From Zavarzinia marina (lineage in GTDB: Bacteria > Pseudomonadota > Alphaproteobacteria > Zavarziniales > Zavarziniaceae): a stretch of 64,000 nucleotides of DNA. The position numbers and the translations under genes are program-made. Of the stretch, positions 4,468 through 49,068 are shown one piece after another. The stretch covers positions 310,001 to 374,000 of the forward strand of contig NZ_JAKGSB010000003.1 of the NCBI RefSeq assembly GCF_021568905.1. The letters run 5' to 3'. Below the pieces are notes generated by a model. It was given only the letters and a program-made list of their open reading frames with translations. It was not told the DNA's origin and searched no databases. Positions within the stretch are counted from its first letter, which is position 1; each line of letters begins with the position of its first letter.

Positions 4468-5490
4468 TCAGGCTTTGCCGTCGACGCCGGCTTCGGTGAA
4501 GCTCGCCATTTCGCCGTGGGTGCGGGCGGCGGCGCGGAGGAGGCTGGCGGCGACGGCGGCGCCCGAAGCCTCGCCAAGACGCATGCCGAGGTCGAGAAGG
4601 GGCAGGAGGCCGAGGCGGTCGAGCAGGCGGCGGTGCGCCGGCTCGGCGGAGCAATGGCCGGCAATGGCATGGTCCAGGCCGCCATCGCGGAGCAGTGCCA
4701 GGGGGGCGACGGCGGCCGTCGCGACATAACCGTCGAGGATCACGGGCACGCGGGCGTGGCGCGCGGCGATGCAGGCGCCCAGCATGGCGGCCAATTCGCG
4801 TCCGCCGAGCCGCCGGGCGAGGTCGAGGGGATCGTCGCTCTCCGTGCGGTGGAAGGCGGCGGCGCCGGCGACGGCGGCGATCTTGGTGGCGAGCACGGCG
4901 CCCGAGGCACCGGTACCGGGGCCTACCCATTCCTCCGCCGTGCCGCCGAAGAGACCGGCCGCGAGCGCCGCCGCCACCGTCGTATTGCCGATGCCCATCT
5001 CGCCGAGGCAGATGAGGTCGAGGCCCGGTTCGACCGTGGCGAAGCCGGCGGCGACGGCGGCGATGAATTCATCTTCGGACAGGGCAGGGGCGCTACGGAA
5101 ATCGGCCGTCGGGCGGTCGAGGTCGAGGGGCGTCACCACCAGATCGGCACCGATGGCGCGGGCGAGCGCATTGATGGCGGCGCCACCGTTGTCGAAATTC
5201 GCCACCATCTGCGCCGTCACGCTGGCCGGATAGGGCGAGACCCCGGCGCCGGCGATGCCGTGGTTGCCGGCGAAGACCGCGATCCGAATCGATTCGGCGC
5301 CCGGCCGTGCCCGGCCCTGCCAGCGCGCCAGATGGATCGCCAGATCCTCCAGCCGGCCGAGGGCACCGGGCGGCTTGGTCAGAACGGCGTCGCGGGCGGC
5401 GGCGGCACTGGCCGCGATTTCGTCGCCTTCGGGCATGGCCTGGATCAGCCGGCGGAGGCCGGCGAGATCGACGGGCGGTTTGATCGTCAT
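4468..5490 (-). CDS. cobT: Nicotinate-nucleotide:DMB phosphoribosyltransferase
   Basis: CobT activates 5,6-dimethylbenzimidazole to alpha-ribazole phosphate for the lower ligand of cobalamin. The 340-residue protein has the NaMN-binding GEMGIGNTT segment, the VGPGTGASG loop and the C-terminal SFTEAGV with the presumed catalytic Glu at about residue 333. The start ATG at 5490 is chosen because the frame continues upstream antisense to cobS, which is clearly not CobT. It is divergent from cobS, 72 bases away, so both late nucleotide-loop genes share a control region. I see no cobalamin riboswitch there. Confidence 0.95.
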   Translation of the reverse strand: MTIKPPVDLAGLRRLIQAMPEGDEIAASAAAARDAVLTKPPGALGRLEDLAIHLARWQGRARPGAESIRIAVFAGNHGIAGAGVSPYPASVTAQMVANFDNGGAAINALARAIGADLVVTPLDLDRPTADFRSAPALSEDEFIAAVAAGFATVEPGLDLICLGEMGIGNTTVAAALAAGLFGGTAEEWVGPGTGASGAVLATKIAAVAGAAAFHRTESDDPLDLARRLGGRELAAMLGACIAARHARVPVILDGYVATAAVAPLALLRDGGLDHAIAGHCSAEPAHRRLLDRLGLLPLLDLGMRLGEASGAAVAASLLRAAARTHGEMASFTEAGVDGKA

Positions 5491-7033: not shown

Positions 7034-7939
7034 ATGGCCGTCCAGATCCCCTATCGCCGCGACATGGCGTTCGAATACGGCCGCTTGGAGCCGGTGGCCC
7101 CCGGGCTTCGCCGCATCGTCGCGCAAAATCCGTCCGCCTTCACCTTCCATGGCACCGGGACCTATGTGGTGGGGGAGGGACGGGTGGCGGTGATCGACCC
7201 CGGCCCCGACGATCCCGCCCATATCGACGCCCTGCTGGCGGGCCTGGGTGGGGAACGGGTCAGCCATATCCTGGTCACCCACACCCATCACGATCATTCG
7301 CCGGGCGCCGCCCCCCTTCGCCAGGCAACGGGGGCGCCCACCTTCGGCTTCGGCCCCCATGGCGCCGGCAGGCCCGAGGCGGCGGGCCAGCAGGCGGTGG
7401 AGGGCGGCGACCTCGACTTCGTGCCCGACCGCCGGCTGGTCGATGGCGACGTGGTCGCCGGCCCCGGCTGGACCATCGAGGCGGTGCACACCCCCGGTCA
7501 CACTTCCAACCACCTGTGCTTTTCCTGGCGCGAGCCCAAGGTGTTGTTCACCGGCGATCACGTCATGGGTTGGTCGACCAGTGTCATCACCCCGCCCGAC
7601 GGCGACATGGGCGATTACATGGAAAGCCTGCGCCGCCTGCTTTCGCGTGACGAGGAAACCTATTGGCCGACCCACGGCCCCGCCATCATCGACCCGCGCA
7701 CCCATGTCGAAGCCTTCATCGCCCATCGCGGCGAGCGCGAGGCCCAGCTTCTCGGCCAATTGGCGGCAGGACCGGCGACGATCATGGACATGGTGCCCAC
7801 GATCTATGCCGGGGTCGATCCCGCGCTCTATCCGGCGGCGGCGCGCTCCAGCTTCGCCCATCTGCTGCATCTGCACGACCAGGGCAGGGTGCGGGCCGAA
7901 CCGGGGCCCGGCCTCGACGCCCGCTGGTCCCTGGCCTGA
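7034..7939 (+). CDS. MBL-fold metallo-hydrolase (LACTB2-like)
   Basis: A metallo-beta-lactamase-fold hydrolase of 301 residues. The zinc motif HTHHDH is at residues 83-88, with further ligands in the TPGHTSNH segment and the GDHVMG aspartate. A C-terminal winged-helix-like tail (about residues 230-300) matches the LACTB2/beta-lactamase-like-2 subgroup, some of which cleave single-stranded RNA. The substrate here is not known. It is 19 bases before the patatin gene and likely co-transcribed. Confidence 0.85.
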   Translation: MAVQIPYRRDMAFEYGRLEPVAPGLRRIVAQNPSAFTFHGTGTYVVGEGRVAVIDPGPDDPAHIDALLAGLGGERVSHILVTHTHHDHSPGAAPLRQATGAPTFGFGPHGAGRPEAAGQQAVEGGDLDFVPDRRLVDGDVVAGPGWTIEAVHTPGHTSNHLCFSWREPKVLFTGDHVMGWSTSVITPPDGDMGDYMESLRRLLSRDEETYWPTHGPAIIDPRTHVEAFIAHRGEREAQLLGQLAAGPATIMDMVPTIYAGVDPALYPAAARSSFAHLLHLHDQGRVRAEPGPGLDARWSLA

Positions 7940-7957
7940 AACCCCCGGCCCGAGACC

Positions 7958-9706
7958 GTGGACACGACCGCCGGGGCGCCCTGCCTGATCGACGGTATCG
8001 CCCTCTTCGCCGATCTCGATGCCGATGCAAGGCGGGACGTGGTCGATCACGCCGCCTGGTACAGCCTGCCGGGCGGCAGCCTGCTGTTCGCCCAGGGCGA
8101 GCCGGGCGACGCGCTCTACGTCCTGCTGCGCGGCAGTATCGCGGTCATGCGCGAGGCCCCGGACGGGGCGCGCCGGCGCATCGCCCGGGTCCGCGCCGGC
8201 GAAGTGGTGGGCGAAATGGCGCTGGTCAGCGGGCGCCCGCGTTCCGCCCATGCGGTGGCGGAACGCGACTGCGAGGTGCTGCGCCTCGACCGCCTGGCCT
8301 TCGAGCAATTGGTCACCCGCCATCCCAAATCCATGCTGCGCCTGACCCGGCAGATCGTCGCCCGGCTGGAGTTGCTGCACGAACATCCGGCCGGCGCGCC
8401 GCCCGATGGACCGCATTCGATCGTGCTGCTGCCGCTGGGCGGCGTGCGTGACTGCACGGGGCTTAGGCGCGACCTCGCCCGGGCGCTCCGCCTCTACGGC
8501 AAGGTCGCGGAGATCACCGAGGCGGAGGGCGCCGGCCATCAGACCGACTGGTTCCACGACATCGAGAGCGCCCATGATTTCGTGCTCTATCAGGCCGACG
8601 AAAGCGCCGGACCATGGAGCCTGCTGTGCCTGCGCCAGGCCGACCGCTGTCTGATCGTCGCCGGCGCCGACGATCCCGAACCGCGCCGCCGCCACCCGCT
8701 GGAAGATGTCGCCCATGAACGCGGCGTCGCCCTCGAACTCGTCCTTCTGCACCCGCCCGACCGGCTTCAGCCCGACGGCAGCGCCGCCTTCCTGGGCGGG
8801 CGGCCGCTCGCCCTGCATCATCATGTGCGCTCGGGCGTCTGGGGCGATGCCGCGCGTCTCGCCCGCCAGATGGCGGGCAAGGCGATCGGCCTCGTGCTGT
8901 CGGGCGGCGGCGCCAGGGGCTTCGCCCATCTCGGCGTGTTGCGGGCACTCGCCGAGGCGGGGATCGCCATCGACATGGTGGGCGGCAGTTCCATGGGCGC
9001 GATCGTCGGCGTCGGCGCGGCGCTTCATTGGGACGCCCATGACGCCGAGGCCCGGTTTCGCCGGGCCTTCGTCGACAGCGATCCGATGCGCGACTTCACA
9101 CTGCCCCTGGTCGCGCTCACCGCCGGCCGGCGGGTCACCCGGCGCCTGCGCGAAGCCTTCGGCGAGCGCCGGATCGAGGATCTGTGGCTGCCCTTCTTCT
9201 GCACCTCGACCAATCTGACCCGGGGCACGCTGGCGGTGCATCGCCGGGGCCCGCTGTGGCGCTGGCTGCGCGCCGGTGTCGCCATTCCCGGCGTCATGCC
9301 GCCCTGGGTGAACCCCGACGGCGAGATCTTCGCGGACGGCGGCGTCTTGGACAATCTGCCGGTCGGGCCCATGCGCGAGATGGGCCGGGGCCCGGTGATC
9401 GCGGTCGACGTGGGCGAGGCGGTCGCCTTCTCGGCGCCGGGCGCGCGGCCGGAGGAAACCTGGTTCGAGCGCCTGATCCTGCGCCGGCGCCCGCGCATGC
9501 CCGGCATCTTCGAGACTCTGCTGCGGGCCGGCACGGTGAAGACCCCGGCGGAGCGCCTGGCCGACCTCTGCCTGAAGCCGCCGGTCGAGGAGATCGACTT
9601 CCTGAACTGGCGCGCCTTCGAGCGCGCGATCGCCATCGGGCGCGACCATGCACGGGCGGAATTGCACCATGCGCCGGCAAGCATAACGGGCGCGCCACGC
9701 CCTTGA
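7958..9706 (+). CDS. cNMP-binding-domain patatin-like phospholipase (NTE family)
   Basis: A 582-residue fusion of an N-terminal cyclic-nucleotide-binding-like domain (about residues 15-135) with a middle region and a C-terminal patatin esterase domain. In the patatin part the oxyanion loop GGGARG is at 316-321, the nucleophile Ser345 in GSSMG, and the dyad Asp460 in ADGG. It has no signal peptide. This is the bacterial architecture related to neuropathy target esterase, expected to hydrolyse lysophospholipids or acyl esters at the membrane. The start is GTG at 7958, just after the MBL gene. Confidence 0.9.
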   Translation: MDTTAGAPCLIDGIALFADLDADARRDVVDHAAWYSLPGGSLLFAQGEPGDALYVLLRGSIAVMREAPDGARRRIARVRAGEVVGEMALVSGRPRSAHAVAERDCEVLRLDRLAFEQLVTRHPKSMLRLTRQIVARLELLHEHPAGAPPDGPHSIVLLPLGGVRDCTGLRRDLARALRLYGKVAEITEAEGAGHQTDWFHDIESAHDFVLYQADESAGPWSLLCLRQADRCLIVAGADDPEPRRRHPLEDVAHERGVALELVLLHPPDRLQPDGSAAFLGGRPLALHHHVRSGVWGDAARLARQMAGKAIGLVLSGGGARGFAHLGVLRALAEAGIAIDMVGGSSMGAIVGVGAALHWDAHDAEARFRRAFVDSDPMRDFTLPLVALTAGRRVTRRLREAFGERRIEDLWLPFFCTSTNLTRGTLAVHRRGPLWRWLRAGVAIPGVMPPWVNPDGEIFADGGVLDNLPVGPMREMGRGPVIAVDVGEAVAFSAPGARPEETWFERLILRRRPRMPGIFETLLRAGTVKTPAERLADLCLKPPVEEIDFLNWRAFERAIAIGRDHARAELHHAPASITGAPRP

Positions 9707-42797: not shown

Positions 42798-43811
42798 TCA
42801 GATCCGTCGCGCGAGATGGGTGCCGTCGTCCTGCGCGGCGAAGGTCCAGCGCTGGCCCGTAAAGCGGGCGATCACATCCGCCGCCGTCAGGCTGTGCCGG
42901 CTCGGCTTCACCGTGGTAAAGGCGCCGCCGCCGGCGAGCGCGAAGGGCAGCAGCAGTTGGTCCGCCAGATAGGGGCCGGCGAAAGCCGCCGAGCCGATGA
43001 AGCCCGCCATGCGTTGGGCCGCCGTCTTGGCCAGCGACTGGGCCGAGGTGCCGATCTTGCCGAAACCCGTCACAATCTCCGTTCCCCGTTCGAAAGCGGC
43101 CTCCAGCAGCAGCACGTTGCCCGGTCCGCGATCCGCGGGCAGTTCATGCGTGGCGAAGGCCTCTTCCGGCCAATCCAGGAACCGCCGCGCCGTCTCGATC
43201 TCGCGCGTGACGATGTCGAACGGCAGGCCGGCGATCAGCGCCGTCGCCGATACGGAGAGGGGCGCGCCGCGATCGAGGCAATCGACCGGGGACAGCGGCG
43301 CGGGCGCGATCTCGATCTCCACCCGGCCGCCGCCGCGCGGATAGAAGCCGTGGCGTATCAGCCGGGCCGTGACGCGGGGACCCAAGCGATTCAGCACCGG
43401 CAGGAAACAGCGATCGATGAAATCGAAGGGCGGCGCCTGCATATTGTGGGTGCCGCCCTCGAGCACGAGGCGCGACGGCGCGCCCGCCATCACCAGCGGC
43501 ATCAGCACCGTCTGCAGCACGAGGCTGGTCGAGCCCGCGGTGCCGACCGCGAAATGATAGTCGCCCGCGCGGACGGTGCCGGGGTGGAAGGTGATTTCGG
43601 ACGCCCCGACGGCCGCGCCGTCACAGGTCGCATCGGCGATGGCGCAGGCAGCCTCCACCGCGGTCAGATGCTGGCGCATCAGGCCCGGCTTTTCGCGGCC
43701 GCCCCGAATATTGGTGATCCGGAAGGGCTGGCCGGTCGCGAGCGACAGGGCGAGCGCATTGCGCACCACCTGCCCGCCGCCTTCGCCTTCGGCCCCGTCG
43801 ATCGTGATCAT
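42798..43811 (-). CDS. rtcA: RNA 3'-terminal phosphate cyclase
   Basis: RtcA uses ATP to convert RNA 3'-phosphates to 2',3'-cyclic phosphates (and can adenylylate 5' ends), working with RtcB in RNA repair. The 337-residue protein has the family GEGGGQVVRNALALS start, FYPRGGGRVEIEI, ADQLLLPFALA, and the nucleotidylated His306 in PSRHSLT (E. coli His309). AGAGGAC precedes the ATG. It lies 31 bases after rtcB and is the last gene of the sigma-54-dependent rsr-RNA-rtcBA unit. Confidence 0.95.
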   Translation of the reverse strand: MITIDGAEGEGGGQVVRNALALSLATGQPFRITNIRGGREKPGLMRQHLTAVEAACAIADATCDGAAVGASEITFHPGTVRAGDYHFAVGTAGSTSLVLQTVLMPLVMAGAPSRLVLEGGTHNMQAPPFDFIDRCFLPVLNRLGPRVTARLIRHGFYPRGGGRVEIEIAPAPLSPVDCLDRGAPLSVSATALIAGLPFDIVTREIETARRFLDWPEEAFATHELPADRGPGNVLLLEAAFERGTEIVTGFGKIGTSAQSLAKTAAQRMAGFIGSAAFAGPYLADQLLLPFALAGGGAFTTVKPSRHSLTAADVIARFTGQRWTFAAQDDGTHLARRI

Positions 43812-43842: not shown

Positions 43843-45069
43843 TCAGCCCTTCACGCACACCACCTGCTTCAGGGTGTGGACGATCTCCACCAGATCGGCC
43901 TGGGCGGCCATCACGGCTTCGATCGGCTTGTAGGCCTTGGGCGTTTCGTCGATCACGCCCGCGTCCTTGCGGCATTCGACGCCTTCGGTGTCGTGGATGT
44001 GTTCCTCCAGCGTCACCTGGCGCTTGGCCTCGTGGCGGGACATGACGCGTCCCGCGCCATGGCTGCAGCTGTCGAACGCCTCGGCGTTGCCGAGACCACG
44101 CACGATGAAGGACTTCGCCCCCATCGAGCCCGGAATGATGCCCATCGCCCCCTTGGCCGCGCGCACCGCGCCCTTCCGGGTCACGAGCACGTTGGCGCCG
44201 AAGTGGTTTTCCCGCGCCACGTAATTGTGGTGGCAGTTCACCGCCTCCAGCTCGGCGTCGAAGGGCTTGGCGATCCGGCCGCGCAGCGCCCGGATCACAT
44301 TGGTCATCATCGTCCGCCGGTTCAGCGCGGCGAAATCCTGGGCCCATTCGACCGCCTCGACGTAATCGTCGAAATGGTCGGTCCCTTCCGGGAAATAGGC
44401 CAGATTCTCGTCGGGCAGATTGACGAACCACTTCCGCATATCCTGCTTCGCCAGCTCGATGAAGAAGCTGCCGATGGCATTGCCCACCCCGCGCGAGCCG
44501 GAGTGGAGCATGATCCACACCCGCTGCTCGGTATCGAGGCAGATCTCGATGAAGTGATTGCCGGTGCCCAGCGTCCCCAGATGCACGAGGCTGTTCGCCT
44601 TCTTCAGCCGGGGATACTTGGCCGCGATCCGGTCGAAACGATCGGCCAGCGTCGCCCAGGCGGCGACGATCTCGGGGCCGGGATCGCCCCAGCTTCCGTT
44701 GTCGCGCTTGCCCCGGCCGACGGCGCGGCCATGGGGCACGGCCTGCTCGATCGCCGAACGGATGCCTTCCAGACTGTCGGGCAGATCCATCGCCGTCAGC
44801 GAGGTCCGCGCCGCCATCATGCCGCAGCCGATGTCGACGCCGACCGCCGCCGGAATCACCGCGCCCTTGGTCGGGATCACCGAACCCACGGTGGCGCCGA
44901 TGCCGACATGGACGTCGGGCATGGCCGCCATGTGGCGGTAGATGAAGGGCATCCGCGCCGCATTGGCGAGCTGTACCCGCGCCTTGTCGTCGACCGGCAC
45001 GCCCTTCGTCCACATCTTGATCGGCACGCCGCCTTCGACGTGCTGGATGTCGTAAGTCTTCTCGGTCAT
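43843..45069 (-). CDS. rtcB: RNA-splicing ligase RtcB (GTP-dependent 3'-5' RNA ligase)
   Basis: RtcB joins 2',3'-cyclic-phosphate or 3'-phosphate ends to 5'-OH ends, for instance after tRNA cleavage by toxins. Manganese ligands D79/C82 are in GVDIGCGMMA and the guanylylated His337 is in SHGAGR, exactly the E. coli number; the 408-residue length also equals E. coli RtcB. I chose the ATG at 45069, with GTGAGG just upstream. An in-frame open stretch to 45348 crosses the tRNA-like RNAs and is not protein. Confidence 0.96.
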   Translation of the reverse strand: MTEKTYDIQHVEGGVPIKMWTKGVPVDDKARVQLANAARMPFIYRHMAAMPDVHVGIGATVGSVIPTKGAVIPAAVGVDIGCGMMAARTSLTAMDLPDSLEGIRSAIEQAVPHGRAVGRGKRDNGSWGDPGPEIVAAWATLADRFDRIAAKYPRLKKANSLVHLGTLGTGNHFIEICLDTEQRVWIMLHSGSRGVGNAIGSFFIELAKQDMRKWFVNLPDENLAYFPEGTDHFDDYVEAVEWAQDFAALNRRTMMTNVIRALRGRIAKPFDAELEAVNCHHNYVARENHFGANVLVTRKGAVRAAKGAMGIIPGSMGAKSFIVRGLGNAEAFDSCSHGAGRVMSRHEAKRQVTLEEHIHDTEGVECRKDAGVIDETPKAYKPIEAVMAAQADLVEIVHTLKQVVCVKG

Positions 45070-45105
45070 GGCTGACCTCACTTGTCCTTCTCTGTCGTGC
45101 CTCCA

Positions 45106-45211
45106 CGCGACGACCAGCGATTGGCGAGACATTTCTCCCATGGCTCTCGCCATGAGGGGAGGATTCGAACCTCCTGACTGCCTAAATGTAGTCCCGCCGG
45201 CATTCGCCGCG
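45106..45211 (-). ncRNA. YrlA-like Y RNA, element 4 (minimal tRNA-like form)
   Basis: About 106 nt, 5' end near 45211, just upstream of rtcB. Outer stem CGCGGCGA/TCGTCGCG, internal loop ATGCC, and inner stem GGCGGGAC/GTCTCGCC are shared with its siblings. Inside, ACATTT/AAATGT pairs, followed by a perfect tRNA T-arm GGAGG-TTCGAAT-CCTCC (45158-45174) and an acceptor-like hairpin ATGGC-GAGA-GCCAT with a GNRA loop. D-arm and anticodon arm are missing. Boundaries are the ends of the outer stem, not mapped ends. Confidence 0.75.
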
Positions 45212-45222
45212 CTTCGGCTCGG

Positions 45223-45346
45223 ACTGGCGACGACGGAGGGCGAGACGGTGCCTGAGCTATCCGGTTGCCCGGAGGTGGAGTTGAACCACCGCCTCCCACA
45301 CGGATGTGGGCGCTCTGTCCAAGTAGTCCCGCCGGCATTCGCCAGC
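45223..45346 (-). ncRNA. YrlA-like Y RNA, element 3 (circularly permuted tRNA mimic)
   Basis: About 124 nt, 5' end near 45346. Outer stem CTGGCGA/TCGCCAG, loop ATGCC, inner stem GGCGGGAC/GTCTCGCC. The core reads as a tRNA cut open in the D-loop. TTGGACAGAGC comes first, then a CCCACA-TCCG-TGTGGG arm in place of the anticodon arm, a variable loop AGGC, the T-arm GGTGG-TTCAACT-CCACC (45274-45290), a short acceptor TCCGG-GCAA-CCGGA, and finally TAGCTCAG, whose GCTC pairs with GAGC to close the D-stem. No anticodon and no CCA end. Confidence 0.8.
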
Positions 45347-45357
45347 ATCGAAATGGT

Positions 45358-45491
45358 CCATGGCGACCAGGCATATGGCGGACATGCCTCACTCTAGCGC
45401 GAAGCTAGCGACCGTTTTGCCGGCCCGACAGGCGTCGAACCCGCGACCCGGGGAGTGACAGTCCATGTAGTCCGCCAGGCATTCGCCATGG
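45358..45491 (-). ncRNA. YrlA-like Y RNA, element 2 (divergent)
   Basis: About 134 nt, 5' end near 45491. Outer stem CCATGGCGA/TCGCCATGG (9 bp), loop ATGCC, inner stem TGGCGGAC/GTCCGCCA, a compensated variant of the sibling stem. Inside, CACTC/GAGTG pairs, and there is a T-arm GCGGG-TTCGACG-CCTGT with two wobble pairs (45428-45444). Two further hairpins follow: GGCCG/CGGTC and CTAGC/GCTAG. The tRNA-like core is the least regular of the four. Confidence 0.7.
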
Positions 45492-45504
45492 GGTTAGGGG
45501 GGGG

Positions 45505-45662
45505 GATCGTGGCGACGAGAGACGGCGAGACGCGGCCCTTAAGCTACGTGTCGGCGGCGGGGTTCGAACCCGCATCTCCCCATGCCCTTGCGGGCGTCGG
45601 GGCGCTTTACTCGTCGGGCCTCGCGGTTGTGACGTGTAGTCCCGCCAGCATTCGCCACGATC
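45505..45662 (-). ncRNA. YrlA-like Y RNA, element 1 (extended tRNA mimic)
   Basis: About 158 nt, 5' end near 45662, starting 8 bases after the rsr stop. Outer stem GATCGTGGCGA/TCGCCACGATC (11 bp), loop ATGCT, inner stem GGCGGGAC/GTCTCGCC, plus an extra GGCCC/GGGCC pairing. The core has D-stem halves AAAGC and TAGCTTAAG (permuted order), an enlarged arm with a GCCC-GCAA-GGGC tip in place of the anticodon, T-arm GCGGG-TTCGAAC-CCCGC (45557-45573), and almost no acceptor stem. Confidence 0.78.
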
Positions 45663-45669
45663 CCTGTTC

Positions 45670-47217
45670 TCAAACCTCCGTCTGTTCGACGATCCCGACC
45701 CAGTCGCGCGTCTCGCCCGAGACGAAGCGCGCGATCACGTCGAAGACCGCGTCGGAGAACCCTCCGACATTCAGAATTTCCGGCCGTCCGGTCGCCTGGG
45801 CGGTGCCATAGGGCTGGATATCGATGCAGACGAGTTTCGCCTGCGGGTTCCGTTTCACGATCCGTTGCCATTCCAGCATCGTCGCCGTGGCGCCGTACCG
45901 CGTGGCATCGACCCAGGACTGATTGTCCGAGACGATGACCACCAGATCGACCTCCGCCTTCTCGTCGGCCAGCAGGGCGAGCGGCGCCGAGACATTGGTC
46001 CCGCCACCATTCAACGCCGCCAGACGCGCCGTATTGACCGCAAGACGGTCATCCGGGGGCAGGGCGACCGGATATACCGTGGTGCCGAAGGGCAGCACGC
46101 GGGCCTGCCGGTTGGTGCGCAGCATGGCCGCCGCGAACAGCGCGGCGACATCGATGCAGGTAACCTTGGACGTGGCGCCCTTGCGGTAACCCGTCGCCGG
46201 CGAATGCATCGACCCCGAAACATCGGGGCAGACCACCACGCGGCCCGGCACTTTCGGCACGGCACGCAGCGAGAACTCCAACGCCTCCTCCAGCGCCGCC
46301 TGAACCGCCAGCGGCACACCGTTCGAGACCTGACCCAGCGCCATCATGAGCTGATAGGGCAGGGGCCGGACCTTGTGCAGCGTGTCTTGATCCGCGAGCC
46401 TTTCGGCCACGCGTTCCAGTACCCGCTTCTCCTCCAGCACGCCATTGCGCGCCAGGGTGTTCAGATTCATGCGCAGCGCCTGCCACCCCATCCGCTCCGA
46501 AAGCTCGCACCATTGCGCCGTGGTCAGCGGGAAGCTGGTCAGCCATTCGAAGGGCACGGGCGGCAGCGGCAGCGTGCCGTCGCGCTTCCAGGCCTCGAAG
46601 GCGGCGATCTCCGCCGGCAGGGCGGCGACGTCGTAGGGACGGTCCAGCAGCCAGCCGTAGAAAGCCTTCCGCACGGCGTCCGCCGGCTTGGGGTGGACCA
46701 TCTTCACGATGTCCGCCAGGCTCGGATCGCCACCGGTCGCGGCGGCCATCAGGTCGCGCATCGAGGCCCGCTCCAGCCAGTTCTGCACCAGGCGCTTCGG
46801 CCGCGTGCCCAGCGACTTCCTCCCGACCTGACCCGACCGCATGATCTGCACGAAATTGCGCAGCATGCGGCCATTGTCGATCACCCGGCCGAAGACGCGA
46901 ACCGCGAGGTCGGGATCGGCGACGGTCAGATAGGCGGTCAGCAGGGTCGGCATATCCTTCATCGCGCCCGACGTCCGCGCATAGACCGCCGCCTTGGCGA
47001 CGAACAGCGGGTCGAGCTTGCGGGCGGCCTCCAGCACGTCGGCAAGCTGCGTCTCGGCGCCGGCATAGAACGTCTCGGACAGGGTGCCGGTCGCCGCCAG
47101 TTGGGCGAGCTTGGCGGCCGGCGCATAGTCATAGGCCTGCGCCCCCGCGCGGTTCCGCGTGTCGGTGCTCGGCAGCAGCATGGCCACGGCGCTCGCGAAC
47201 AATCCCTTGTTGGCCAT
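45670..47217 (-). CDS. rsr: Ro60 ortholog Rsr (TROVE and VWA domains)
   Basis: Rsr is the bacterial Ro60: a HEAT-repeat ring (TROVE, about residues 15-320) that binds Y RNA and misfolded RNA, closed by a von Willebrand A domain with the MIDAS motif DVSGS (D332, S334, S336). 515 residues is typical. Known partners are Y RNAs and exoribonucleases such as PNPase. AAGGAG precedes the ATG, and a sigma-54 promoter lies about 85-110 bases upstream. The gene heads the operon rsr-four RNAs-rtcB-rtcA, the same order as Salmonella rsr-yrlBA-rtcBA. Confidence 0.95.
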   Translation of the reverse strand: MANKGLFASAVAMLLPSTDTRNRAGAQAYDYAPAAKLAQLAATGTLSETFYAGAETQLADVLEAARKLDPLFVAKAAVYARTSGAMKDMPTLLTAYLTVADPDLAVRVFGRVIDNGRMLRNFVQIMRSGQVGRKSLGTRPKRLVQNWLERASMRDLMAAATGGDPSLADIVKMVHPKPADAVRKAFYGWLLDRPYDVAALPAEIAAFEAWKRDGTLPLPPVPFEWLTSFPLTTAQWCELSERMGWQALRMNLNTLARNGVLEEKRVLERVAERLADQDTLHKVRPLPYQLMMALGQVSNGVPLAVQAALEEALEFSLRAVPKVPGRVVVCPDVSGSMHSPATGYRKGATSKVTCIDVAALFAAAMLRTNRQARVLPFGTTVYPVALPPDDRLAVNTARLAALNGGGTNVSAPLALLADEKAEVDLVVIVSDNQSWVDATRYGATATMLEWQRIVKRNPQAKLVCIDIQPYGTAQATGRPEILNVGGFSDAVFDVIARFVSGETRDWVGIVEQTEV

Positions 47218-47313: not shown

Positions 47314-47329
47314 TGCAGAAGGCATGCCA
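47314..47329 (-). promoter_or_regulatory. Sigma-54 (RpoN) promoter of the rsr-rtcBA operon
   Basis: Minus-strand TGGCATG-CCTT-CTGCA matches the -24/-12 consensus TGGCACG-N4-TTGCA in 10 of 12 fixed positions, with the invariant GG and GC ten bases apart. Transcription would begin near 47303, leaving an 85-base leader before rsr. RtcR next door is a sigma-54 activator, so the match has independent support. Confidence 0.85.
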
Positions 47330-47376
47330 ATCCCGATGATGATCGGTGAGTTTTCTATAAGTTATTGAAATTGAAC

Positions 47377-47466: not shown

Positions 47467-49068
47467 ATGAAACCGCTGACCGTGATCGGATTCCTGGGCT
47501 CCACCCTCGATGCCAGCAAGTTCGGGCCGTCGCGCTGGAACAAGTGGCGGCCGACGGTCGGCCTTGCCATGCATGACGATCTGCGGGTCGACCGGCTGAT
47601 CCTGCTGCATGGCAAGGCGCACGACCGGCTGGCGGCCTATGTGACGGAAGACGTGCGTGCTGTCTCACCCGAGACGTCGGTCGATCTGCGCCGCCTCGAC
47701 TTCAAGGATCCTTGGGATTTCGAGGAGGTTTACGGCACCTTGCTCGACTTCGCGCGGGGCCAGGCCTTCGATCCCGAGGCGGAGGACTATCTGATCCACA
47801 TCACCACCGGCACCCATGTGATGCAGATCTGCCTGTTCCTCCTGACCGAGGCGCGCGACCTGCCCGGGCGCCTGCTCCAGACCCAGCCGTCGCGCGGGGA
47901 GATCAGGCCGGCCGGCAGCTACAGCATCATCGACCTGGACCTGTCGCGTTACGACAGTATCGCCACCCGTTTCGCCGCCGCCAGCGCCGAGAGCGCGTCC
48001 TTCCTCAAGTCCGGCATCGAGACCCGGAATGGCGCCTTCAACCGCATGATCGACGAGATCGAGCGCGTGGCGCTGCGCTCCCGCGCGCCGGTTCTGCTGA
48101 TGGGCCCGACCGGCGCGGGCAAGAGCCAGCTCGCTCGACGCATTCACGAATTGAAGCGCCTGAAGCATCAGGTCGCCGGCAGCTTCATCGAGGTGAATTG
48201 CGCGACCCTGAAGGGCGACAATGCCATGTCCGCCCTGTTCGGCCACCGGAAAGGGGCCTTTACCGGCGCCGTCTCGGATCGGCCCGGGCTGTTGCGCGCG
48301 GCCGACCGGGGCATGCTGTTTCTCGACGAGATCGGCGAACTCGGCCTCGACGAACAGGCGATGATTCTTCGCGCGATCGAGGACAAGCGTTTCCTCCCCG
48401 TCGGCTCCGACAGGGAGGCGGCATCGGATTTTCAACTGATCGCCGGCACCAACCGTGACCTGGGCGAAGCGGTTTCGGCCGGCGCCTTCCGCGAGGATCT
48501 CTATGCCCGCCTGAACCTGTGGACCTTCCGCCTTCCCGGCCTCGCCGCCCGGCGCGAGGACATCGAGCCCAATCTCGACTACGAGCTCGACCGTTTCGCC
48601 GAACGGGAAGGAGACCGCGTCAGCTTCAACAAGGAAGCCCGCCAGCGCTATCTCGCCTTCGCCACCGCCCCCGATGCCTCCTGGCCCGGCAATTTCCGCG
48701 ATCTCGCCGCCAGCATCACGCGCATGGCGACCCTCGCGCCCCGGGGCCGCATCGATACCGAGACGGTCGACGTCGAAATCGCCCGCCTGCGCCGGCTCTG
48801 GTCCGGCCAGGCGCGGGCGGACGAAGCGGGCGCGGGCGACCTCCTGTCCGAATTCCTCACCGCGGATGCCCTTGCCGCGATCGACCGCTTCGACCGCGTT
48901 CAACTCGCCGATGTCATCCGCGTCTGCCGCGCCAGTCGTACCCTTTCCGACGCCGGCCGCACTCTCTTCAACGCCTCGCGCACCCGCCGCAGCACCGCCA
49001 ACGACGCCGATCGCCTGCGGAAATATCTGGCGCGCTTCGGCTTGGAATGGCGTGCGGTGGCCGGGTGA
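47467..49068 (+). CDS. rtcR: Sigma-54-dependent activator RtcR (CARF sensor)
   Basis: RtcR switches on the RNA-repair operon. The 533 residues comprise an N-terminal CARF-type Rossmann sensor (about 1-180), a AAA+ domain with Walker A GPTGAGKS (213-220), the sigma-54-contacting GAFTGA loop (263-268) and Walker B GMLFLDE (282-288), and a C-terminal Fis-type helix-turn-helix. In enterobacteria the CARF domain responds to RNA ends bearing 2',3'-cyclic phosphate from damaged tRNA. It is divergent from rsr. No Shine-Dalgarno is visible: the 20 bases before ATG are AT-rich, hinting at low basal translation. Confidence 0.95.
   Translation: MKPLTVIGFLGSTLDASKFGPSRWNKWRPTVGLAMHDDLRVDRLILLHGKAHDRLAAYVTEDVRAVSPETSVDLRRLDFKDPWDFEEVYGTLLDFARGQAFDPEAEDYLIHITTGTHVMQICLFLLTEARDLPGRLLQTQPSRGEIRPAGSYSIIDLDLSRYDSIATRFAAASAESASFLKSGIETRNGAFNRMIDEIERVALRSRAPVLLMGPTGAGKSQLARRIHELKRLKHQVAGSFIEVNCATLKGDNAMSALFGHRKGAFTGAVSDRPGLLRAADRGMLFLDEIGELGLDEQAMILRAIEDKRFLPVGSDREAASDFQLIAGTNRDLGEAVSAGAFREDLYARLNLWTFRLPGLAARREDIEPNLDYELDRFAEREGDRVSFNKEARQRYLAFATAPDASWPGNFRDLAASITRMATLAPRGRIDTETVDVEIARLRRLWSGQARADEAGAGDLLSEFLTADALAAIDRFDRVQLADVIRVCRASRTLSDAGRTLFNASRTRRSTANDADRLRKYLARFGLEWRAVAG

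What the first reader, a model, noticed from the sequence alone, without database searches (positions are those of the whole stretch)
45106..45662. Tandem array of four tRNA-mimicking Y-like RNAs between rsr and rtcB
Seen: within 560 bases on the minus strand, four units each have an outer stem ending GGCGA/TCGCC, a five-base loop ATGC(C/T), an inner 8-bp stem (GGCGGGAC/GTCTCGCC, or TGGCGGAC/GTCCGCCA in unit 2) and a tRNA T-arm with TTCRANY-type loop (45158, 45274, 45428 and 45557). Known: Salmonella has two Y RNAs (YrlA, YrlB) at this exact place in rsr-yrlBA-rtcBA, and YrlA has a tRNA-like domain. Inference: this genome expanded the Y RNA set to four distinct members, which may give Ro60 different partners or gates.
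Basis: partly seen in the sequence, partly recalled or inferred. Interest (0 to 1): 0.88.

Follow-up and report, generated by a model that had tools for sequence, protein, structure and literature searches.

The report
Ro60-linked RNAs built from rearranged tRNAs
Between two RNA-repair genes this bacterium carries four small RNAs of the kind that bind the Ro60 protein; each holds a tRNA-like body, and their relatives show that these bodies are tRNAs with the gene order rotated, cut open either in the D loop (a form not seen in the reference model) or in the anticodon stem with a real anticodon loop still present.

Summary
Four Y-RNA units (Y1-Y4) fill the rsr-rtcB gap; their Ro motif occurs exactly four times in the 3.95-Mb genome and nowhere else. 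"This genome expanded the set" is not supported: 87 related rsr loci carry 2-7 units (mostly 4-5), and a unit's nearest relative is in another locus in 370 of 377 cases. The units are old classes kept in order.

New here: the classes are different permutations of a whole tRNA. (B) YrlA type, Ro helix in the anticodon arm. (C) The 3' D strand lies upstream, so the cloverleaf is entered through the D loop: 88 of 92 units without a downstream D partner (shuffled 19.5%), with strong covariation; 60 of 79 alphaproteobacterial loci, none of 12 beta/gamma loci. (T) T-arm/acceptor minihelix. Many B units also keep a canonical anticodon hairpin (U33 50/53, A37 49/53) and, in alphaproteobacteria, an encoded NCCA end (34/54, shuffled 3.5%). 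Window: Y1 and Y3 are C, Y2 a decayed B with an Asp-type loop, Y4 T.

Likeliest role: Ro60-tethered tRNA baits in an operon switched on by cut tRNAs. The function is inferred. The primary Y RNA papers were not readable here, so novelty is provisional.

The parts
45507..45660 (-). Y1: Y RNA of class C1 (cloverleaf entered through the D loop; long anticodon-position arm; no clear capped acceptor)
   Evidence: Ro motif; RF02553 27.0 bits; covariation of 9 orthologues in A3
45604..45607 (-). Y1 3' D strand AAGC, lying upstream of the T-arm
   Evidence: pairs with GCTT at 45541-45544; pair types GCTT/AAGC and GCTC/GAGC across orthologues
45557..45573 (-). Y1 T-arm
   Evidence: T-stem pairs in A3
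45358..45491 (-). Y2: Y RNA of class B (YrlA type), decayed: weak T and D arms, broken acceptor
   Evidence: best RF02553 score of the four, 36.6 bits; rotation does not give an ARAGORN tRNA; alternative minimum-energy fold
45452..45464 (-). Y2 anticodon hairpin GGA-CTGTCAC-TCC; loop identical to that of the genome's own tRNA-Asp(GTC)
45222..45347 (-). Y3: Y RNA of class C2 (complete cloverleaf entered through the D loop; acceptor capped by GCAA; anticodon arm with a non-anticodon loop)
   Evidence: 14-sequence alignment A2, covariation; R1 115.5 bits, a training sequence; called tRNA after rotation with the acceptor padded
45312..45315 (-). Y3 3' D strand GAGC, upstream of the anticodon and T arms
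   Evidence: pairs with GCTC at 45254-45257
45274..45290 (-). Y3 T-arm
45105..45212 (-). Y4: Y RNA of class T (T-arm plus acceptor capped by GAGA; no D or anticodon arm)
   Evidence: RF02553 32.8 bits; fold z -3.06
45673..47217 (-). rsr (Ro60 orthologue)
   Evidence: Pfam vWA_Ro60 3.5e-19, TROVE 2.5e-7
43843..45069 (-). rtcB (RNA ligase), starts about 36 nt after Y4
   Evidence: Pfam RtcB 4.9e-127
42798..43811 (-). rtcA (RNA 3'-phosphate cyclase)
   Evidence: Pfam RTC 6.9e-73
47467..49068 (+). rtcR (sigma-54 activator with RtcR sensor domain), divergent
   Evidence: Pfam RtcR 6.3e-80, Sigma54_activat 4.8e-50
47314..47330 (-). sigma-54-type promoter TTGGCATGCCTTCTGCA upstream of rsr
   Evidence: sequence; a similar site upstream of rsr in 72 of 91 loci (44 of 1860 shuffled regions)

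Best explanation
The segment encodes four Y RNAs made with rsr and rtcBA from an RtcR/sigma-54 promoter. Each has a Ro60-binding helix (GGCGAATGC ... GGACTAC) carrying a module derived from a circularly permuted tRNA. The family comes in fixed classes: in B the Ro helix is inserted in the 5' strand of the anticodon stem (between tRNA nt 28 and 29), in C it is inserted in the D loop (between about nt 15 and 18), and in T only the T-arm and a capped acceptor remain. Shown by sequence: existence, classes, covariation, orthology, operon context. Inferred: Rsr binds each RNA and displays a tRNA body to tRNA-acting proteins in different orientations. The B type, with its anticodon loop, most likely serves as bait or competitor for the nucleases that cut tRNAs in the anticodon loop, the damage that turns the operon on through RtcR. 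The C and T types, with non-anticodon loops and capped ends, most likely act as uncuttable tethers or gates, for example to a 3'-5' exonuclease as in Deinococcus. My odds: Y RNA identity 0.95; permutation classes 0.9; bait role for B 0.35.
For: Motif 4 of 4 in the genome, control 0. RF02553 is the best family for all four. rsr, rtcB, rtcA and rtcR context; sigma-54 site. D-loop opening: of 213 units with a T-arm and 5' D strand, 121 pair downstream (5 of these also have an upstream partner) and 92 do not; of these 92, 89 have a partner upstream, 88 in tRNA D-loop context, against 19.5% shuffled. Covariation: C2 94.3% paired, 54 double-change cells against 16.6 shuffled, slid helices at most 53%; C1 95.4%, 23 against 7.4; B 98.4%, 83 against 23.3, with all three anticodon-stem pairs and both lower-stem pairs covarying. 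Anticodon hairpin at fixed register in 47 of 55 B units, 39 with Y32 U33 R37 (shuffled 10.6% and 0.67%); loop composition. NCCA in 34 of 54 against 3.5%. Rotated B units called tRNA with the expected anticodon 52 of 53; unrotated, wrong-order and shuffled 0. Literature: the operon is induced when tRNAs are cut in the anticodon loop, RtcR binds 5' tRNA fragments, and the authors suggest that the YrlA tRNA-like domain may competitively inhibit the nuclease (PMC7790460).
Against: No expression, Rsr-binding or cleavage data exist for this organism. In Salmonella YrlA is not cut by the RecA-dependent nuclease (PMC7790460), although the enterobacterial B unit examined here (L133) lacks the canonical anticodon hairpin. 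In the window the only B unit, Y2, is decayed: rotation does not yield a tRNA and its minimum-energy fold differs. Single-sequence folding is unremarkable for Y1 and Y3 (z -1.1 and -1.5). ARAGORN is permissive: forcing 20 nt before the T-arm onto B units with a short 5' segment still gives a 7-nt-loop tRNA in 35 of 57, and chimeric halves give 45 of 53, so those calls alone are weak.
Confidence: 0.55

Rival explanations
1. Interchangeable tethers: all units do the same job, linking Rsr to one partner such as PNPase, and copy number only raises the dose; class differences are drift.
For: All units share the same Ro helix; Deinococcus Y RNA tethers Rsr to PNPase (stated in PMC7790460).
Against: Classes stay distinct across orders: the nearest neighbour has the same class in 330 of 377 cases and lies in the same locus in only 7; unit order is conserved.
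Confidence: 0.25
2. B units are real permuted tRNA genes: RNase P and a 3' nuclease open the acceptor loop, a nuclease removes the Ro helix and the adjacent RtcB joins nt 28 to 29, giving a translating tRNA.
For: Complete cloverleaf, canonical anticodon loop, encoded NCCA; RtcB is a tRNA ligase; permuted tRNA genes of archaea encode CCA (PMC3978253).
Against: Acceptor stems stay nearly constant (26 of 29 are GGGCCCG, GGACCCG or GGGCCTG) while anticodons vary, and discriminators do not follow the anticodon; anticodons with A34 and UCA occur; beta/gamma B units lack NCCA; the inserted helix is the conserved Ro site shared with units that have no tRNA body.
Confidence: 0.05
3. Structured intergenic RNA that protects or separates the rsr and rtcB messages, with no free RNA product.
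For: Co-directional between rsr and rtcB; strongly structured.
Against: The Ro motif and tRNA tertiary signature (TTCRANY T-loop, D-loop G18 G19 context) are kept, which message protection does not need; the homologous Salmonella YrlA was probed as an RNA in its own right (PMC7790460).
Confidence: 0.1
4. Recent tandem duplication in this genome.
For: Four units share the Ro helix.
Against: Best own-locus match ranks 42nd to 135th of 376 for each window unit; related loci carry the same classes.
Confidence: 0.02

Closest known systems
YrlA / bacterial Y RNA (Rfam RF02553; Salmonella rsr-yrlBA-rtcBA)
   Same: Position between rsr and rtcB, Ro-binding helix, T, acceptor and D arms in permuted order (class B)
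   Different: RF02553 has no anticodon hairpin (it aligns as an insertion for Y2) and cannot represent class C, where the D strands pair across the cloverleaf; the window units score 27-37 bits against a gathering score of 69
Crystal structure of Salmonella YrlA (PDB 6CU1), described as a circular permutation of tRNA in PMC11472068
   Same: A tRNA permuted with the Ro helix in the anticodon region
   Different: Here there is in addition a second permutation point (D loop), and B units with a full anticodon loop and, in alphaproteobacteria, NCCA
Circularly permuted tRNA genes of red and green algae and archaea (PMC3978253)
   Same: 3' half before 5' half, short linker between the CCA side and nt 1; CCA encoded in the archaeal cases
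   Different: Here a Ro60-binding helix sits in the anticodon stem; no sign of splicing; anticodon not matched to the acceptor
Deinococcus Y RNA (Rsr-PNPase tether)
   Same: Rsr partner RNA
   Different: Not matched by sequence here; a different operon (known from the literature, not tested)

Membership tests
Bacterial Y RNA (Rsr-associated) | Encoded beside an rsr gene | tested here: met
   About 10 nt after the rsr stop codon; Pfam
Bacterial Y RNA (Rsr-associated) | Long terminal stem with the conserved Ro-side motif | tested here: met
   GRCGAATGC..GRACTAC in all four; outer and inner stems covary
Bacterial Y RNA (Rsr-associated) | tRNA-like domain in at least one member | tested here: met
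   Y1 and Y3 clear, Y4 partial, Y2 decayed
Bacterial Y RNA (Rsr-associated) | Bound by Rsr in the cell | not testable with these tools
   needs pull-down
Bacterial Y RNA (Rsr-associated) | tRNA modifications (pseudouridine, dihydrouridine) | not testable with these tools
   T-loops keep TTCRANY in most units; no chemical data
Rfam RF02553 (YrlA as curated) | Score at or above the gathering cut-off (69 bits) | tested here: not met
   27.0-36.6 bits; not filed under RF02553 as curated
Rfam RF02553 (YrlA as curated) | D-arm intact downstream of the acceptor | tested here: not met
   Y1 and Y3 have the 3' D strand upstream; Y4 has no D arm; Y2 has only a weak G.U-rich form
Circularly permuted tRNA gene | Complete cloverleaf with 7-nt anticodon loop after rotation | tested here: inconclusive
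   Met in 52 of 53 B units of related loci, not in window Y2
Circularly permuted tRNA gene | Matures to a charged tRNA | not testable with these tools
   acceptor identity does not follow the anticodon, which argues against it

The most novel reading that the evidence does not exclude
Alphaproteobacterial YrlA-type Y RNAs are whole permuted tRNAs with live anticodon loops and an encoded NCCA end. RNase P and 3' trimming open the acceptor, so that Rsr holds a two-piece tRNA whose anticodon is offered to anticodon nucleases; cutting it spares real tRNAs, and the adjacent RtcA/RtcB reset it. D-loop-opened and minihelix Y RNAs from the same array are uncuttable partners that hold Rsr or PNPase. 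Anticodon triplets change quickly because the nucleases do.
Probability: 0.2. Interest if true: 0.92.

Novelty: new variant of a known kind. Interest (0 to 1): 0.72.

Why it matters
The partners of bacterial Ro60 and the reason its RNAs imitate tRNA are open questions. If the classes hold up, one operon displays the same tRNA body on Ro60 in at least two geometries, and the B class carries the very loop whose cleavage switches the operon on. That turns a vague 'tRNA mimic' into a testable link between Ro60, anticodon nucleases and RtcB repair. It also shows that the public model (RF02553) misses or mis-models most members in alphaproteobacteria.

Tried and rejected
Chance repeats: rejected. 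Recent tandem expansion: rejected. Ordinary tRNA genes: ARAGORN finds none in the array. A covariance model of C2 (R1) as a genome-wide detector failed: below about 45 bits it rings on ordinary and tandem tRNA genes in most genomes (336 of 385), as RF02553 does weakly, so no genome-wide census was made. My first automatic classification used a wrong D-strand pattern and was discarded. The first C count forced pairing by selection; the claim rests on the unforced test and on MAFFT alignments. Manual rotation of window Y2 gave no tRNA. Congeners were of no help: 0 of 5 carry rsr. Chen 2014, Wang 2018 and Sim & Wolin 2018 are not held.

Full report
What is there. On the minus strand between rsr (45673-47217) and rtcB (43843-45069) lie four units of 108-154 nt. 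Pfam confirms rsr (vWA_Ro60, TROVE), rtcB, rtcA and the divergent rtcR. A sigma-54-type site, TTGGCATGccttCTGCA, lies at 47314-47330; a comparable site is upstream of rsr in 72 of 91 loci, against 44 of 1860 shuffled regions. The Ro motif GRCGAATGC-N3-8-GRACTAC occurs four times in the 3.95-Mb genome, all here; the reversed control occurs 0 times. RF02553 (YrlA) is the best family for all four but stays below its gathering score.

Not an expansion of this genome. None of 5 congeners and 6 of 385 class genomes (this one included) carry this rsr. One scan of genome contigs with an Rsr alignment gave 80 loci, the best of 573; with plasmid and genome loci this makes 377 units in 87 loci: 2 units in 5 loci, 3 in 16, 4 in 27, 5 in 26, 6 in 10, 7 in 3. 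A unit's nearest neighbour by global alignment lies in the same locus in only 7 of 377 cases and has the same class in 330. Window order C1-B-C2-T equals that of Sphingomonas L022. The sample is biased towards Rsr close to the query.

Two permutations. Of 377 units, 314 have a T-arm. Of 213 with a T-arm and a tRNA-like 5' D strand (TAGCTC-like), 121 have the 3' D strand downstream, so the D arm is intact and the molecule is entered through the anticodon arm, as in YrlA; only 5 of these also pair upstream. Of the 92 without a downstream partner, 89 pair upstream and 88 do so in D-loop context, against 19.5% after shuffling. Pair types are GCTC/GAGC, GCTT/AAGC and GCGC/GCGC. In these units the order is: 3' part of the D loop (GGTA), 3' D strand, anticodon-position arm, variable region, T-arm, acceptor hairpin, U8 A9, 5' D strand, AG. 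The cloverleaf is thus opened in the D loop. On an alignment made without structure, 94.3% of cells pair (81.8% shuffled), with 54 double changes against 16.6; slid helices fall to 53% or less. RNAalifold finds the same cloverleaf unaided. The C1 subclass (window Y1) gives 95.4% and 23 against 7.4 and has an extra helix next to the D stem (GGCCC/GGGCC here). Class C is in 60 of 79 alphaproteobacterial loci and in none of 12 beta/gamma loci (Fisher p 4e-7, with phylogeny ignored).

B units are more complete than the YrlA model. Comparison with the genome's own tRNAs showed that Y2 has the anticodon loop of tRNA-Asp(GTC), CTGTCAC. At a fixed distance from the T-arm, 47 of 55 distinct long B units have a 3-bp stem with a 7-nt loop, 39 with Y32, U33 and R37 (shuffled 10.6% and 0.67%); 13 different stems occur, and pairs 27-28/42-43 hold in 45 of 47. 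So the Ro helix is inserted in the 5' strand of the anticodon stem, between nt 28 and 29. Loop composition, counted over whole distinct units: U33 50/53, A37 49/53, positions 34-36 variable (1.5-1.65 bits). In the MAFFT alignment A4 98.4% of cells pair, with 83 double changes against 23.3. In alphaproteobacteria with a 7-bp acceptor and room for it, NCCA follows nt 72 in 34 of 54 cases (3.5% shuffled), then a linker of 1-45 nt leads to nt 1. Rotated into tRNA order, 52 of 53 are called tRNA with the expected anticodon; unrotated, wrong order and shuffled give 0. Caution: ARAGORN is permissive, since forced rotation of short B units also gives 7-nt-loop tRNAs in 35 of 57 and chimeric halves give 45 of 53; the hairpin claim rests on register, composition and covariation. 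Beta/gamma B units keep the hairpin (8 of 8) but no NCCA. C units keep a stem at the anticodon position, but the loop is usually 6 or 4 nt (long in C1) and lacks U33; 29 of 29 with a capped acceptor are read as tRNAs after rotation with a padded acceptor, mostly with no valid anticodon.

The window set. Y1 is C1. Y2 is a decayed B: anticodon hairpin GGA-CUGUCAC-UCC kept, T-stem with two G.U pairs, acceptor broken, no tRNA after rotation, another minimum-energy fold. Y3 is C2 with GCAA-capped acceptor. Y4 is class T: T-arm plus GAGA-capped hairpin (z -3.06).

Mechanism. Shown elsewhere: the Salmonella operon is induced when tRNAs are cut in the anticodon loop, RtcR binds 5' halves ending in 2',3'-cyclic phosphate, YrlA itself is not cut, and a competitor role was suggested (PMC7790460); YrlA is a circular permutation of tRNA by 3D comparison (PMC11472068); a review names only the D, T and acceptor arms as mimicked (PMC8394870). 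Inferred here: Rsr holds tRNA bodies by the elbow (C) or by the anticodon stem (B); B units with anticodon loops would be baits or competitors for anticodon nucleases, C and T units inert tethers or gates. Against decoding: acceptor stems stay nearly constant while anticodons vary, discriminators do not follow, and A34 and UCA anticodons occur.

Novelty. Bacterial Y RNAs, their place in rsr-rtcBA operons and permuted tRNA mimicry are known. The D-loop-opened class, the anticodon hairpins, the encoded NCCA and the ordered multi-class arrays are not in Rfam's model or in the papers readable here, but the three primary Y RNA papers were not held, so this is provisional.

Noticed in passing
window 47314-47330: Sigma-54-type promoter about 97 nt upstream of the rsr start, conserved in most related loci.
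   Followed up: yes
L091 (NZ_VCCH02000080.1): Record labelled 'Mycobacterium sp. KBS0706' carries an alphaproteobacterial rsr locus much like Inquilinus limosus (L067); probably mislabelled.
   Followed up: no
L133 (OR851267.1), H42 (OR845705.1): Short 'Salmonella/Escherichia phage' records that look like host rsr fragments; L133 has three Y units (one without T-arm, one B, one T type).
   Followed up: partly
Permuted tRNA-like covariance models ring weakly on ordinary and tandem tRNA genes, where neighbours read as a rotated tRNA; Rfam YrlA hits under about 45 bits are unreliable.
   Followed up: yes
class B units of related loci, e.g. L008_3, L037_3, L045_3, L048_3, L068_1: The linker between NCCA and nt 1 usually ends in TAT, CAT or TGC just before G1, across orders; possibly an RNase P site.
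   Followed up: partly
L012 (Shinella plasmid) 7373-8554: A second RtcB-family gene lies downstream of the rsr-Y-rtcB cluster.
   Followed up: no
L013 (Myxococcus phage Mx1) 3501-5150, 5784-5854: Phage Ro60 gene near an annotated tRNA-Gly gene; no unit with this Ro motif was found, so the annotated tRNA may deserve a look as a Y RNA.
   Followed up: no
L007 (viral contig) near 4859: A single Ro-motif match (GCCGAATGC..GGACTACA) lies about 140 nt upstream of a viral rsr gene.
   Followed up: no
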